This document shows, piece by piece, positions 1 through 4,993 of a stretch of DNA of 64,000 nt. The stretch's first letter is position 1. Every line of letters begins with the position of its first letter. The notes under the pieces are model-generated. The model was given only the letters and a program-made list of their open reading frames with translations. It searched no databases and was not told the origin of the DNA. The DNA lies in the NCBI RefSeq assembly GCF_003716585.1, contig NZ_PTJO01000005.1, positions 62,001 to 126,000 on the forward strand, given 5' to 3'. A program made the position numbers and the translations under genes. Source of the stretch: Corynebacterium alimapuense (GTDB taxonomy: Bacteria > Actinomycetota > Actinomycetes > Mycobacteriales > Mycobacteriaceae).

Positions 1-315
1 GCAGAGAACGTGGAATGAGTCCTTGTGGTCGAGCAACCAACGCAGGTACGAGAGCCCCTGGTTGATGACATTCTCGTTTTGGCCCTTCTTGTACTCAATA
101 ATGCACGGGTTGCCGTCATCGTCGATGCCGAGGGTGTCCATGCGCCCACCGAAGCTGGTTGAGTACTCGCTGGCCAAGAAGTGGACGCCAAGGATCTCAT
201 ACAGGCTGCCCTCGAAGATCTTCTGGATGTCTCGCTCCAGAACCTTCTTCCCATTGACGGTAGTCATGGGCTTAACCTGCTTGGCCGAGTCTTGGCCCAC
301 TTCAAAGAGAATCAT
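1..315 (-). CDS. DUF5655/predicted transport-like protein, N-terminal part (3' end outside window)
   Basis: This is the first 105 codons of a gene that continues past the left edge. It starts at ATG 315, giving MILFEVGQDSAKQVKP. The translated part contains FLASEYSTSFGGRMDTLGID, then CIIEYKKG and NENVINQGLSYLRWLLDHK. This is the characteristic N-terminal block of proteins annotated as DUF5655 or 'predicted transport protein', whose fold resembles PD-(D/E)xK nucleases: the D of RMDTLGID and the E and K of IEYKK fit a D...ExK arrangement. Its molecular role is not known to me. It lies 134 bp downstream of the UvrD-like helicase on the same strand, so it could belong to the same defence block. 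The family call is fairly sure; the function is not. Confidence 0.7.
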   Translation of the reverse strand, partial: MILFEVGQDSAKQVKPMTTVNGKKVLERDIQKIFEGSLYEILGVHFLASEYSTSFGGRMDTLGIDDDGNPCIIEYKKGQNENVINQGLSYLRWLLDHKDSFHVLC

Positions 316-449: not shown

Positions 450-1589
450 TCATTCCTGCATCGGTGACCAGATCTGAACTTCTGGCAGTAAGTTCTGCAA
501 AAACGGCTTGGTTGGCTTTTGAGGGACGATTGCCACCGAATACCTAGCTCGCGTCACTCCGACATAGAAGCCACAGGCCGATTTGTCGACAAGATATTCC
601 TTCCCCTTAAGGAAATTGTCGATAGGACCAGTTGCGGCAATCAACACCCGAGCAAACGTTCGCCCTTTAACTTGTCCGATGTTCTCGAATCCAAGATGAG
701 AGAGGTGTTTCGCGGTGGCCTTACTCCCACGAAGAGGAGTTGGCGAATAGAGTTTCATATATGCATCCAGATCATCTTTCAGGACTAGGAATACACCATC
801 GTGCCCGGTGACCGCCTTGTTCGCCGATCTGGTTGGGCTAAAACTAAACCTAGGAGGGAAAATTGAATCAGAAAAATGGGAAATCAAGGCGTTAGATCGG
901 TAAGTAGTCGATAATTCGCTGATCTGCAGTATCCCCGATTTCTCTCGACTTCTATACCAGTTAATCAGCTCAAGTCGGTCGGTGCTTTTATTGCGAGGAG
1001 AGAACAGACTACTGTCGATCAGGGACTGACGAGTATCTCCAACAGAATAGAAATTGAGTGCGTTCTGGTTTAGCAGGAGATCAATAATGTCGAGACCTTT
1101 TCTACTAATATCCTGAGCCTCATCGATGACAAGTTCATCATAAATCCGGGCCAATCTTGCTTCAACGAGACCACCCGCCTCCATCATTACGGCAAAAGCT
1201 AAATTTTCAATTGTTTCTTGAAAAATACACCAATTCGAATCAAAGTAGCGCAAAGTGCTGTCTCCACGCTGGAAGCGAATATACTTAGCCCTATCTTTCT
1301 TATCTTTACTGTCGTCGGGTGGAAACGAAAATCCCATGACCTTTGCATTTGGAAAGAGCAGCGGAAGGTACGGGCGAATACAATGATGAATCAAGAACGA
1401 GTACCAACCAGACACGTCTGGCAATCTTGCCGGAGAACAGGCTTCTTTTAGGCGACCCTCTAACTCATTCTGACCAGTCAGTGTCAAGGTGACGATCAGT
1501 CTCCGCGTGGATTTTTCATCGTTGACGCATCTGTCGATGATGCTCTGCGTCTTACCTGCGCCCGCACAAGCATGAACGAACTGGTGCAT
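450..1589 (-). CDS. UvrD/Rep-like superfamily 1 helicase, GajB-like
   Basis: A 379-residue SF1 helicase/ATPase. Walker A is ACAGAGKT at residues 7-14. Walker B is LVIDEAQD near residue 153, followed by VGDTRQS. STTYRSN (motif IV region) and VGVTRARYSVAIV (motif VI) lie further on. It is short for a UvrD-like protein; family members of the Gabija type are usually around 490 residues, so accessory subdomains are probably reduced. Its start shares one base with the stop of the upstream OLD-type nuclease gene (TAATG), which indicates translational coupling. OLD-type nuclease followed by UvrD-like helicase is the Gabija arrangement (GajA-GajB), in which the helicase is thought to sense or process DNA ends and work with the nuclease during phage infection. 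The assignment to Gabija is inferred from motifs and order. Confidence 0.8.
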   Translation of the reverse strand: MHQFVHACAGAGKTQSIIDRCVNDEKSTRRLIVTLTLTGQNELEGRLKEACSPARLPDVSGWYSFLIHHCIRPYLPLLFPNAKVMGFSFPPDDSKDKKDRAKYIRFQRGDSTLRYFDSNWCIFQETIENLAFAVMMEAGGLVEARLARIYDELVIDEAQDISRKGLDIIDLLLNQNALNFYSVGDTRQSLIDSSLFSPRNKSTDRLELINWYRSREKSGILQISELSTTYRSNALISHFSDSIFPPRFSFSPTRSANKAVTGHDGVFLVLKDDLDAYMKLYSPTPLRGSKATAKHLSHLGFENIGQVKGRTFARVLIAATGPIDNFLKGKEYLVDKSACGFYVGVTRARYSVAIVPQKPTKPFLQNLLPEVQIWSPMQE

Positions 1590-3217
1590 TAGCTTGATCG
1601 ACTCCCGGGCGGGCTCATCAGGAAGTCGAATGCCTCATTGAAATATACGGGCGGAAGAATCTTAGACTGGCTCTCTGCAATCTTGAGTGCCGCAGTGGTC
1701 TTGTTGCCAGTCATCCATGACTCAACGTCAGTGCCAGGGTCGAGGTCAAATAGTTCCCTTAGAGCCTCCGCCTTGTTCGCGTTGCAGATCTGTGGCTCCA
1801 AAGTGTGTCCCAGCCCCTTGTCTCCAATAAAAAACTGCCGGTGTCCTGGCTCAAGATACTGGGTCGACTTTTCCTCCCAGTGGCTCGCACTTTCCCCGTC
1901 ATTATCTCGAAGTGCAGCTAACCTAATTCCCAGCCGATCGGCCAATTCAAAGGCACGAGCAAAGCTCGTTCCTACAGTGACCACATCTATTCCTTGGTCT
2001 AGTGGCTCAACTCCAAAGCGGTCTTTGAAGAAGCGGTTGAACACTATCTCGTCAGAAGGTCCCTCGACTACCACGGCCAAATCCGCGAGCAATAATCTCA
2101 GACTATCGAAGCCCGAAAGCTTCTGAAAATATTCCACGGTTTCGGGAGACAACTGGTCAAACTTGCGGATCTCCCCCGACCTCAACATTGCTAAGTGATC
2201 TAGCCCGAGTCGGTTCAGCACAAAGGAACTATGTGTTGTCACGAAAAGTTGTTGATCTCCCACGTTCTTGCTCACCAAATCGAGAAGAATGCGAAGTTTT
2301 GTATGGCTAAGATGGTTCTCGGGCTCCTCAATTAGTACGCAGCTGACGTTTGCATGAGATTGATTGAGCGCGAGAATCGTCTTTGCTGTTACTTGCGCCC
2401 CCTGACCTGCAAGCCCCAGCGGGATACCGCCAATCTCAGGGATTAGGGTTGCGTCCCAAGAAGCTGAACGAGATTGATCTACCTGGATGCCAACTCCTAC
2501 CGATCCGGCCTCTTGTGCTTCCCTCCCCAGCTGTTTGTTAATCCCCTTTAGTACGTCTCCGCCGAGAGTCGAACGCATTTTACGATGCTCAACAGATATA
2601 CCGACTTTGGCCTTCTCGTCGATTCGTTGATCGAGCAATTGCCTCGTATGCGCGTCAAGACCATTCCGAGAAAATACAGCCTGGCCGTCGATAATCGACA
2701 CACCAAGCCCCTTTGGAGTTTTGAAGATCGGGCCACCGGAAAAATCAAGCCAATCTACCCGATAATACTCTACAGGCAAGATTCGAGGCCAACCCTCAAC
2801 ACTAAAGTAGTTCTCGATCTCTTGCGCATAAGCTGGATCAGGGTACGCGCGTATTGACATCCCTACAGAATCTTCCTCGCTTAGATTGTGGACGCCGCGC
2901 ATAGCTTCCAGCTGCTTGTTTCTCGTTCTCAGGTGTACATCTATTCTGAAATCTGGCATCGGTACACTTGCTCCGACAGACTTCTGGTTAAAGAACTCGT
3001 CTACGTTCGCTTGATTGAACCAGTAAGGATTGATCTCATCGACCGCTCTGAGTCGGCCAATTCTTCCAGTTAGAACCATTATCAGCGCCTCAAGAATTGT
3101 TGATTTTCCAGAGCCGTTTGCGCCAACAATGATGTTGCTTCTCGGGTGCGGTCGAAATTCCATATCCCGGAATTTTCGATAGCCTTTGATCCGCAATTTA
3201 GTTATCTGCATCGACAA
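1589..3217 (-). CDS. OLD-family ATP-dependent endonuclease (ATPase + TOPRIM), GajA-like
   Basis: A 542-residue protein. The N-terminal ABC/SMC-type ATPase half has Walker A GANGSGKST at residues 32-40 and a Walker B-like CVLIEEPENHLS followed by LFVTTHSSFVLN. The C-terminal half is a TOPRIM domain with VVVEGPSDEIVFNRFF (catalytic Glu), VVTVGTSFARAFELAD and LRDNDGES (acidic pair). The domain order and length match class 2 OLD nucleases and GajA, which nick DNA and are held in check by nucleotide binding. The start overlaps the end of the upstream Res fragment by 20 bp and the stop overlaps the downstream helicase start by one base, so the three genes form one transcription and translation unit. 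The OLD-family call is firm. 'Gabija' rests on the helicase partner next door. Confidence 0.85.
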   Translation of the reverse strand: MSMQITKLRIKGYRKFRDMEFRPHPRSNIIVGANGSGKSTILEALIMVLTGRIGRLRAVDEINPYWFNQANVDEFFNQKSVGASVPMPDFRIDVHLRTRNKQLEAMRGVHNLSEEDSVGMSIRAYPDPAYAQEIENYFSVEGWPRILPVEYYRVDWLDFSGGPIFKTPKGLGVSIIDGQAVFSRNGLDAHTRQLLDQRIDEKAKVGISVEHRKMRSTLGGDVLKGINKQLGREAQEAGSVGVGIQVDQSRSASWDATLIPEIGGIPLGLAGQGAQVTAKTILALNQSHANVSCVLIEEPENHLSHTKLRILLDLVSKNVGDQQLFVTTHSSFVLNRLGLDHLAMLRSGEIRKFDQLSPETVEYFQKLSGFDSLRLLLADLAVVVEGPSDEIVFNRFFKDRFGVEPLDQGIDVVTVGTSFARAFELADRLGIRLAALRDNDGESASHWEEKSTQYLEPGHRQFFIGDKGLGHTLEPQICNANKAEALRELFDLDPGTDVESWMTGNKTTAALKIAESQSKILPPVYFNEAFDFLMSPPGSRSS

Positions 3218-4004
3218 CCTGCCTAATCATCGTCACTATGTCATCGCTCTTCAGCTGTGGTCGGAACGTGACTTTGATTTTCTCCTTGTCAACTGATTCG
3301 AAGAACTTCCTCGATGCTTCAAGCCACATCTGCTCACTTTCACGCAGATCAGTAATCTCTTCAACGTCTTTAGTCTCGACGATAAAGTTCAATGACAGTT
3401 TTCCGTCCTTATCTTTTAGGACGTACATGAAATCGGGACTTATCGCGCCGCCGAAGTAAAGGGGCACCGGAATTGAGCGCCGAGGAATCTTACCGAACAC
3501 CACTACCTGGTCCAGGTGGGAATCCCGAATAGTCTGCTTCTCTTTTGGCGAATCATAGGCTAAAACGTCATACAAGAACTTCTCTGGAACGCGAGACTCT
3601 TCGTCCCGATAGACACCGATGTTGCCTTGGATGATCCTCTTGAGTGGCTGACCTTGATCATCAGTCAAAGCTGTAGCGCCTGCCAGCCCTTCGATCTTAG
3701 TATAGGAAAATCGACTGATCATCTCACGCTGCATCCAGACCTGGAAGCCGGTGACGAAATTTCCGAGCGTAGCCTTATCAAAGAAGTTCTTCGGCAGCTT
3801 CTTTTTCTTATCCGCAGCAACTAGGCCGGTATGAATACGATCAGGTGGAAGAAAAGTCTGTTCATATGCCAACTGCAGCCACTCGCCATACGGAATAGCC
3901 TCAGTACTGTCGTAGGTAGACCGAGTTTCTGATCGAGTATCGACCGTGCCGTCGTCATTTATCACGAACGTCTCCCGAAATCCACGTCCGAAGACCTGGC
4001 CCAT
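3198..4004 (-). CDS. C-terminal fragment of a type III restriction enzyme Res subunit
   Basis: A 268-residue open frame whose second half matches the C-terminal nuclease domain of type III restriction Res subunits: VVVFGKIPRRSIPVP, then GGAISPDFMYVL and FIVETKDVEE. The D of SPDF and the E and K of VETK form a PD-(D/E)xK site. Full Res subunits are about 900-1000 residues and carry a large SF2 helicase in front, which is absent here. The frame opens just after an in-frame TGA, only about 40 bp from the 3' end of tRNA-Glu, so the gene looks cut at the tRNA junction. The nuclease core itself is intact. It overlaps the OLD-type gene by 20 bp, so it was in, or became part of, that operon. It is either a relic or a re-used nuclease domain. 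Confidence 0.75.
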   Translation of the reverse strand: MGQVFGRGFRETFVINDDGTVDTRSETRSTYDSTEAIPYGEWLQLAYEQTFLPPDRIHTGLVAADKKKKLPKNFFDKATLGNFVTGFQVWMQREMISRFSYTKIEGLAGATALTDDQGQPLKRIIQGNIGVYRDEESRVPEKFLYDVLAYDSPKEKQTIRDSHLDQVVVFGKIPRRSIPVPLYFGGAISPDFMYVLKDKDGKLSLNFIVETKDVEEITDLRESEQMWLEASRKFFESVDKEKIKVTFRPQLKSDDIVTMIRQVVDADN

Positions 4005-4044
4005 TCTTCAAAAATTCGTACTCGTATGTGTAAGCATACATTGG

Positions 4045-4117
4045 TACCCCGTACGGGATTCGAACCCGTGTTACCGGCGTGAGAGGCCAGCGTCCTAGGC
4101 CACTAGACGAACGGGGC
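4045..4117 (-). tRNA. tRNA-Glu(CUC), copy 1, with encoded CCA
   Basis: The minus strand folds as a 73-nt cloverleaf. The acceptor arms are GCCCCGT and ACGGGGT (first pair a G-U wobble). The anticodon loop is CTCTCAC, with anticodon CUC. The T-arm is GGGTTCGAATCCC. CCA follows directly at 4044-4042. The 73 bp are identical to the copy at 4814-4886. The defence operon begins right after its 3' end, the usual place for islands to integrate. Confidence 0.95.
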
Positions 4118-4214
4118 TTGTTCGCTATATATGTGGTGTCCTGAACGGACTCCATAACAGTAGACGGAACATGCTGGTGGGAACAAATCGCACGCTCAGT
4201 GGCTATAAATAAAG

Positions 4215-4244
4215 AAATCCACCACAGAGACTGTGGTGGATTTT
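4215..4244. terminator. Hairpin terminator, AT-flanked
   Basis: A perfect 13-bp stem, aaatccaccacag / ctgtggtggattt, with a 3-nt loop and A/T tracts on both sides. It could end transcription in either direction. No gene directly precedes it on the plus strand. On the minus strand it would stop read-through from the right before tRNA-Glu copy 1. Confidence 0.7.
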
Positions 4245-4767
4245 CCGAACCGTGGACGGTGGCATGTCCACCGCTTCCGACTGCAGGTGCGAAAGTATCG
4301 TCAGTCTGAGTTGAAGTCCTCTTTGACTGCGTCCGCTGTGGTTCATTAGAACCTAGTTGCCGGGGATTGGCTTGTCCGTTCCGTGGGGTTCGGTTGACGC
4401 CATTCGCAACATGTCTCTCCCGTGTGGCTCCTGTGCTTCGCGCTAACTATGCGCTTGGAAGTTATGGATTATGGCTATGCCGCTCATGGGAGGAAGTCTA
4501 CGACGCGTCCGGGAATAAGATGCGTTCCACTTGCTGCCATATGCTCACCTTCCGCTCCTGTTGCAGTCGGAGTACCGATCTCCCTCTGCCCAACTAGCGG
4601 GCTTTTCAAGGTGTGATCCTCTCCGTTAATTGCAGCTTATTCCCTATCTGCAGGGTGTGGAAGGACTATTTTTACAATCATTATTTGCCCTACCCCCACA
4701 CCGTTAAACCGCCAGTTGCCGGCCACGCACTAAAAGTTAGTTCGGGGGTAAATACTATTTCGAAATC

Positions 4768-4807
4768 AAAAAATCACCTTCAAGCGTGATGCTTGAAGGT
4801 GATTTTT
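4768..4807 (-). terminator. Terminator after tRNA-Glu copy 2
   Basis: Arms aaaaaatcaccttcaagc and gcttgaaggtgattttt form a 17-bp stem around a 5-nt loop, with A/T tails on both sides. It lies 6 bp past the 3' end of tRNA-Glu copy 2, so it most likely ends the tRNA-Gln/tRNA-Glu transcript. Confidence 0.8.
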
Positions 4808-4813
4808 ATGTTG

Positions 4814-4886
4814 TACCCCGTACGGGATTCGAACCCGTGTTACCGGCGTGAGAGGCCAGCGTCCTAGGCCACTAGACGAACGGGGC
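4814..4886 (-). tRNA. tRNA-Glu(CUC), copy 2
   Basis: Identical over 73 bp to copy 1: anticodon CUC, T-arm GGGTTCGAATCCC, acceptor arms GCCCCGT and ACGGGGT. The CCA end is not encoded here (the next bases are CAA after the discriminator A), unlike copy 1. It is followed by a strong terminator and preceded by tRNA-Gln, so the two probably form one unit. Confidence 0.95.
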
Positions 4887-4921
4887 AAGGCGAACTTCAT
4901 CGCCCGCAGATTGCTCTGCAG

Positions 4922-4993
4922 CTGGCCTACCAGGACTCGAACCTAGAACGACGGTACCAGAAACCGCTGTGTTGCCAATTACACCATAGGCCA
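4922..4993 (-). tRNA. tRNA-Gln(CUG)
   Basis: A 72-nt cloverleaf on the minus strand. The acceptor arms are TGGCCTA and TAGGCCA, beginning with U1 as is usual for tRNA-Gln. The anticodon loop is TTCTGGT, with anticodon CUG. The T-arm is AGGTTCGAGTCCT and the discriminator base is G. It lies 35 bp upstream of tRNA-Glu copy 2 and near gltX, a sensible grouping of Glu/Gln decoding functions. Confidence 0.93.

What the first reader, a model, noticed from the sequence alone, without database searches (positions are those of the whole stretch)
450..4004. Gabija-like nuclease-helicase operon fused to a type III Res nuclease domain
An OLD-type ATPase/TOPRIM nuclease and a UvrD-like helicase follow one another with a shared base. 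In front, overlapping by 20 bp, is a 268-residue protein holding only the PD-(D/E)xK end of a type III restriction enzyme. The GajAB pair is established as an anti-phage system; the helicase is unusually short (379 residues). A nuclease domain coupled to it may be an added effector or a relic. I do not know this three-gene form.
Basis: partly seen in the sequence, partly recalled or inferred. Interest (0 to 1): 0.7.

Follow-up and report, generated by a model that had tools for sequence, protein, structure and literature searches.

The report
Gabija pair behind broken restriction gene
An apparently intact two-gene anti-phage system (short-form Gabija) in a Corynebacterium sits behind the left-over tail of a restriction-enzyme gene, so the "third gene" is most likely a deletion scar, although relatives show that Gabija and restriction systems do share operons.

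Summary
The genes are real, all on the minus strand. gajA (1589-3211/3217) and gajB (450-1589) are a complete short-form Gabija pair. GajB at 379 aa is normal for the subtype (median 370 aa over 80 loci). The 268-aa ORF (3198-4004) is most likely not a third system gene. It is the last quarter of a type III res gene, cut at its 5' end. About its first 14 codons lie antisense to the tail of a large serine recombinase gene that reads into the adjacent tRNA-Glu (3963-4076 +). In all 5 other Corynebacterium genomes of the same GajA clade, gajAB follows a type III res: one full-length ORF in 3, frame-broken in 1, decayed in 1. Two of them keep mod-res-gajA-gajB in single ORFs. The same tRNA-Glu cluster carries damaged type III genes in two more species. 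The wider point is that Gabija is repeatedly joined to restriction operons: three distinct type III pairings in Corynebacterium and embedded cases elsewhere, though a minority (7 of 80 loci). Embedding of defence genes in restriction operons is already a published idea, so interest is moderate.

The parts
450..1589 (-). gajB: short UvrD-like helicase, 379 aa, motifs AGAGKT, DEAQD, VKGRTF, VGVTRAR present (motif names recalled)
   Evidence: (PDLC00148 E 5.6e-84)
1589..3217 (-). gajA: OLD-type ABC ATPase + TOPRIM nuclease, 542 aa from TTG 3217 or 540 aa from ATG 3211 (preferred); Walker A, Walker B, EGPSDE and DND motifs present (motif names recalled)
   Evidence: (PDLC00102 E 6.4e-147)
3198..3962 (-). 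res remnant: C-terminal quarter of a type III restriction subunit, PD-(D/E)xK residues present (SPDF...VETK); mod and about 735 residues of Res are missing
3963..4004 (-). first ~14 codons of the 268-aa ORF: antisense of the recombinase tail; deletion breakpoint lies about 3930-3990
3963..4076 (+). 38 codons of the tail of a large serine recombinase gene, reading into the tRNA-Glu 3' end (68% identical to L178 recombinase residues 175-212, E 1.8e-11)
   Evidence: longer relatives L155:18071-19564 and L210
3975..4001 (-). remains of the terminator stem-loop (GCCAGGTC-TTCG-GACCTGGC in L178 and L148); the 3' arm is altered and the T-run absent
4042..4117 (-). tRNA-Glu(CTC), the recombinase-linked copy, possible source of read-through transcription into res'-gajA-gajB
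4813..4886 (-). tRNA-Glu(CTC) with a strong terminator hairpin, next to tRNA-Gln (4921-4993) and gltX
1..315 (-). start of a 307-aa NucS-like/DUF5655 protein (PADLOC candidate PDC-S18) 135 bp downstream of gajB; complete in L009:16392-17315

Best explanation
This is what is left of a composite defence operon mod-res-gajA-gajB after a deletion. The joint between the tail of a tRNA-Glu-linked serine recombinase gene and the inside of res is seen in the sequence; that one deletion removed the rest of the recombinase, mod and about three quarters of res is inferred from relatives. GajA and GajB remain a complete short-form Gabija pair and probably still work as Gabija does: GajA is a DNA nuclease held off by nucleotides, with GajB, a helicase, acting at DNA ends; these steps are taken from the family and were not tested here. 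The operon's own promoter would have gone with mod, and the terminator at the joint is weakened. The pair is therefore most likely transcribed by read-through from tRNA-Glu, with the 268-codon stub serving as a leader whose stop overlaps the gajA start (inferred). The stub's nuclease domain has no motor or methylase partner and most likely does nothing of its own (inferred).
For: Same-genus G247 (L010) has mod 622 aa, res 994 aa, gajA 543 aa and gajB 379 aa with overlapping junctions; G447 (L130) has the same four in single ORFs. All 6 Corynebacterium genomes of this GajA clade (window included) have type III res sequence directly upstream. The clade is 7 rows at 100% SH-aLRT in a quick tree; the seventh row is linked to a type I system. 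Window 3963-4076 (+) encodes the recombinase tail, E 1.8e-11, and the DNA alignment runs through its terminator. An 82-nt stretch over it folds at -22.3 kcal/mol in the window against -35.8 and -34.9 in L178 and L148. A similar recombinase-tail/res-interior joint exists in G114 (L178). The tRNA-Glu site holds type III genes in G316 too. No mod homologue was found in the window's genome. In 54 of 80 loci no complete same-strand ORF of 120 aa or more ends within 250 bp upstream of gajA, so gajAB need not have res before it.
Against: The stub keeps its PD-(D/E)xK residues, has no stop and is not clearly changing faster than full-length res lineages: 9 of 94 otherwise invariant columns broken, against 10 of 96, 5 of 94, 5 of 90, 4 of 89 and 1 of 86. 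The cut may therefore be recent, or the domain may be kept. The breakpoint is uncertain by about 60 bp. Read-through from tRNA-Glu was not shown: one weak promoter-like match (3727-3699) and one terminator-like match (3481-3463) lie inside the stub on its strand, both within chance expectation. Some of the 54 loci begin close upstream of gajA (for example L094, 107 bases), so a gene there could be missed. No strain of the same species could be compared. One search warns that its empty answer has no positive control.
Confidence: 0.85

Rival explanations
1. A genuine three-gene system: the Res endonuclease domain has been kept as an extra nuclease effector working with GajAB.
For: Catalytic motif SPDF...VETK present, open frame, no clear excess of changes at conserved columns; overlapping gene order.
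Against: Not seen elsewhere: in the 5 other Corynebacterium clade members res spans full length (4; one of them frame-broken) or is decayed in a different way (1, L138). Among the 80 collection loci only 1 has a res-panel match within 400 bp upstream of gajA (L067). Its start codon and about its first 14 codons lie antisense to a recombinase gene. A fold of the stub alone was not confident (mean pLDDT 48), which says nothing either way.
Confidence: 0.07
2. The whole locus is dead: gajAB too is a decaying passenger after loss of its promoter.
For: The promoter of the parent operon and mod would be gone; GajA has a long end branch (0.71); gajB is frame-broken in one relative (L129).
Against: Both genes are complete with all motifs looked for. 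Conserved-column losses are ordinary: GajA 9 of 143 (other groups 2-10 of 136-151), GajB 5 of 85 (others 0-10 of 80-92).
Confidence: 0.1
3. The mod-res-gajA-gajB order in relatives is only neighbourhood: both kinds of gene are common in defence islands and fell side by side without working together.
For: 6 of 12 res-bearing Corynebacterium genomes lack gajAB beside it; only 7 of the 80 collection loci have a restriction gene of the panel within 400 bp; the 2 relatives of the long GajA found in 376 genomes have no res match in the short flank upstream.
Against: Three distinct mod-res subfamilies pair with a GajA in Corynebacterium in the same order, and gajAB lies between mod and res in L093 and directly before hsdR in L090. 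Chance adjacency of 6 given 12 res and 11 gajA in 242 genomes is P 1.5e-6, not corrected for kinship.
Confidence: 0.5

Closest known systems
Gabija (GajA/GajB)
   Same: OLD-type ATPase/TOPRIM nuclease plus UvrD-like helicase, adjacent, matching PADLOC GajA/GajB models best
   Different: Belongs to a short subtype (about 540 + 370 aa); sequence similarity to solved GajA is weak (8j4t, E 2.6e-4) and GajB has no PDB match at E 0.001
Type III restriction-modification (EcoP15I Mod/Res)
   Same: The stub aligns to EcoP15I Res 743-967, PDB 4zcf, E 1.1e-29
   Different: No mod beside it, no helicase/motor part; the stub cannot be a type III system
Defence genes embedded in restriction operons (prrC in EcoprrI, passage of PMC12707154; DarTG2 in an E. 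coli type I system, passages of PMC12255303; 'guilt by embedding', Payne et al. 2024 preprint, cited there, not held and not read)
   Same: A second defence system shares the restriction operon, as in G247, G447, L093 and L090
   Different: Here the partner is Gabija and the host operon is type III; in the window the host operon is broken

Membership tests
Gabija | GajA with OLD-type ABC ATPase and TOPRIM nuclease domain | tested here: met
   (Walker A/B, EGPSDE, DND motifs)
Gabija | Adjacent UvrD-like helicase GajB | tested here: met
Gabija | Gene lengths within those of relatives | tested here: met
   GajA 531-563 and GajB 344-403 aa (5-95%) over 80 loci; window 540-542 and 379
Gabija | GajA-GajB complex; nucleotide-inhibited DNA cleavage; phage protection | not testable with these tools
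   needs experiment
Type III restriction-modification | Mod methyltransferase present | tested here: not met
   none beside the stub; no hit in own genome (which had no positive control)
Type III restriction-modification | Res with SF2 helicase motor and endonuclease domain | tested here: not met
   only the endonuclease end is present
Three-gene Gabija + Res-end system | Recurs at this length and order in other genomes | tested here: not met
   0 of 241 other Corynebacterium genomes at E 1e-10
Mobile element at tRNA-Glu | Large serine recombinase gene whose 3' end reads into tRNA-Glu | tested here: inconclusive
   only the tail is in the window; longer relatives in G316 and G423 carry Recombinase domains but as called lack the start of the Resolvase domain; element ends and integration were not shown

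The most novel reading that the evidence does not exclude
Gabija is a recurrent built-in back-up of type III (and type I) restriction operons: mod-res-gajA-gajB, sometimes with a downstream NucS-like protein, acts as one defence unit in which Gabija fires when a phage escapes or inhibits restriction. Gabija has been reported to respond to the phage anti-restriction protein Ocr (passage of PMC12255303). The window would then show the guard outliving the system it guarded.
Probability: 0.3. Interest if true: 0.6.

Novelty: new member of a known kind. Interest (0 to 1): 0.32.

Why it matters
It removes a likely false "third Gabija gene" and shows how it probably arose: a deletion at a recombinase-linked tRNA-Glu. 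In doing so it brings out a composite type III restriction-Gabija operon in several Corynebacterium species that can be moved to a laboratory strain and tested for cooperation between the two systems.

Tried and rejected
Fold of the 268-aa protein with 9 homologues gave mean pLDDT 48 and pTM 0.37, too poor for a fold search, so none was run. The idea that the two tRNA-Glu copies are simply the two ends of one insertion was dropped: two or more copies at this locus are common in the genus, although the copy beside the stub is the recombinase-linked kind. A long end branch of GajA was not borne out as decay by conserved-column counts. The Pfam scan of L178:7651-8292 gave no family; its identity as a serine recombinase rests on longer relatives. 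Literature searches for Gabija with type III restriction, operon, hsdR, embedded, nested, Corynebacterium and Ocr listed no paper that, by title, start of abstract or the passages I opened in six of them, describes a type III-Gabija operon; only open-licence PMC papers are covered. Phage records gave 2 distant GajA hits. Phylum-wide searches found relatives of the long GajA in 2 of 376 genomes, neither with res in the flank seen, and of this res in 17 of 376 (the window's own included); none of the other 16 showed gajA in the flank seen, which is short and often cut. Neighbour scans of the 80 loci gave 3 of 26 upstream neighbours as type I specificity subunits among the families shown, and at most 2 of 40 downstream neighbours for any one family. 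Rows dropped: L138 and L093 (aligned pieces too short); L202, L203 and L137 were left out of the column counts; L204, L182 and L021 were left out of the counts.
Full report
What is there. The window lies in a 2.29-Mb genome (G000, contig C5:62001-126000). On the minus strand, reading from gltX, come tRNA-Gln, tRNA-Glu, about 0.7 kb, a second tRNA-Glu (4042-4117), then the 268-aa ORF, gajA, gajB and a NucS-like gene that runs off the window. leuR, leuC and leuD lie beyond. The first 4 kb have GC 0.49 against about 0.58 further right.

Gabija. Both proteins match the PADLOC Gabija models best and keep the motifs looked for. All 80 loci kept from the genome collection (of 306 confirmed) carry gajA followed by a gajB match, with medians of 538.5 and 370 aa; in one, L091, gajB is in two pieces. 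The "unusually short" helicase is therefore normal for this subtype. In 54 of the 80 no complete same-strand ORF of 120 aa or more ends within 250 bp upstream, so the pair often stands on its own; a few of these loci start close to gajA and could hide a gene.

The res end. The ORF is the end of a type III Res. In the genus, 12 of 242 genomes hold a relative at E 1e-10 and 11 of 242 hold a GajA relative at E 1e-20. In 6 genomes (window, G247, G417, G447, G310, G321) the two are neighbours in the order res-gajA-gajB. Outside the window, res is one full-length ORF in G247, G447 and G310, spans full length but broken in frame in G417, and is a decayed remnant in G321; mod and both gaj genes are also in single ORFs in G247 and G447, while mod is broken in G310 and gajB in G417. 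In the other 6 res-bearing genomes no gajAB of this kind is beside it. The window's GajA falls in a fully supported clade of 7 rows: these six plus an Actinomycetaceae GajA that precedes type I genes.

The joint. After the 3' end of tRNA-Glu 4042-4117 the window matches the sequence after recombinase-linked tRNA-Glu copies in G114 (L178) and G217 (L148), through most of their terminator stem-loop. A search with the G114 recombinase fragment hits the own genome at 3963-4076 on the plus strand (68% over 38 residues, E 1.8e-11), reading HERLPKSTSEDLAHSSKIRTRMCKHTLVPRTGFEPVLP. Longer relatives (open frames of 510 and 489 aa) carry large-serine-recombinase domains and end in the same residues; in G316 that end overlaps tRNA-Glu. 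As called, neither includes the start of the Resolvase domain. So the start codon and about the first 14 codons of the 268-aa ORF lie antisense to the recombinase tail, and a deletion most likely joined this tail to the inside of res. Alignment to Res relatives starts at codon 3-6, so the exact joint within 3930-3990 is open. In G114 a longer recombinase tail likewise meets the inside of another type III res, followed about 0.5 kb on by the same NucS-like gene. In G316 the same site carries tRNA-Glu, a recombinase gene, transposase-like ORFs (read by eye, not scanned), a mod without its N-terminal half, a frameshifted res and then leuR. In the three species where I saw type III genes at this tRNA-Glu cluster they are damaged in all three.

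State of the stub. Its catalytic residues are present. Over the 193 columns shared with G316 it breaks 9 of 94 otherwise invariant columns; the other groups break 10 of 96, 5 of 94, 5 of 90, 4 of 89 and 1 of 86. A first count over all columns with other groupings gave 19 of 125 for the window against 1-7 of 107-118, but there near-sisters in the other groups and the recombinase-derived start bias the comparison. The stub is thus not visibly decayed; the cut may be recent or the domain tolerated. GajA and GajB show ordinary conservation, although GajA has a long end branch.

Expression. An 82-nt stretch over the terminator at the joint folds at -22.3 kcal/mol against -35.8 and -34.9 in L178 and L148, and the scan found no terminator-like site between tRNA-Glu and the stub; one weak terminator-like and one weak promoter-like match lie inside the stub, both within chance numbers. 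Read-through from tRNA-Glu is a reasonable inference, not a result.

Restriction and Gabija together. Beyond this clade, G317 has mod (615 aa), res (977 aa), a long GajA (607 aa), a long GajB (560 aa) and the NucS-like protein in a row, with other mod/res and Gabija subfamilies. A Corynebacterium marinum plasmid has a third mod-res subfamily 152 bp before a short GajA; its gajB would run across the record start and was not checked. Two Rhodococcus plasmids and L016 have gajAB before type I genes. In Sulfurospirillum L093 gajAB lies between mod and res, and in Bacteroidales L090 between hsdM and hsdR, directly before hsdR. But only 7 of the 80 loci have a panel restriction gene within 400 bp (L016, L042, L064, L067, L083, L090, L093), so the link is recurrent, not general. 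Published work describes other defence genes inside type I operons and names the approach guilt by embedding (PMC12255303, passages; PrrC in PMC12707154, passages). My searches found no paper on Gabija with type III operons (listings and passages only).

Mechanism. GajA is reported to be a DNA-nicking enzyme held off by physiological nucleotide levels (PMC8136825, abstract), and GajB to sense DNA ends (passage of PMC11514479). A passage in PMC12255303 says Gabija responds to the phage anti-restriction protein Ocr. Joined to a restriction operon, it could act as a guard when restriction fails. This is the boldest reading left open; nothing here tests it.

Verdict. Ordinary short Gabija with a truncated restriction-gene relic in front; the relatives' intact composite operon is the part worth following.

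Noticed in passing
window 1-315 (-), complete in L009:16392-17315: NucS-like/DUF5655 protein (PDC-S18) is found in 5 of 242 Corynebacterium genomes, each time next to Gabija or type III genes of different subfamilies (window, G340, G367, G317, G114), at 77-92% identity to the window's: a candidate partner or an island anchor.
   Followed up: partly
L177:1535-11016: Second, distinct type III mod-res followed by long-form GajA-GajB and the NucS-like gene in Corynebacterium G317.
   Followed up: partly
L093:8055-17975 and L090:366-10435: gajAB lies between mod and res (Sulfurospirillum) and between hsdM and hsdR, directly before hsdR (Bacteroidales).
   Followed up: partly
L178:4463-8292, L148:3534-3790: Extra tRNA-Glu copies each followed by a truncated serine recombinase tail: signs of repeated integration and decay at tRNA-Glu in Corynebacterium.
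   Followed up: partly
L204:1298-7620: Corynebacterium marinum plasmid with a third type III subfamily (mod 668, res 836 aa) just before a short GajA.
   Followed up: partly
window 4200-4800: About 0.7 kb between the two tRNA-Glu genes without an obvious gene; it contains a strong hairpin with a T-rich tail (4243-4215, -) of unknown origin.
   Followed up: no
L009:15129-16313 (-): YHYH-domain protein between the NucS-like gene and leuR; the search found it in none of the relatives' stretches examined there.
   Followed up: no
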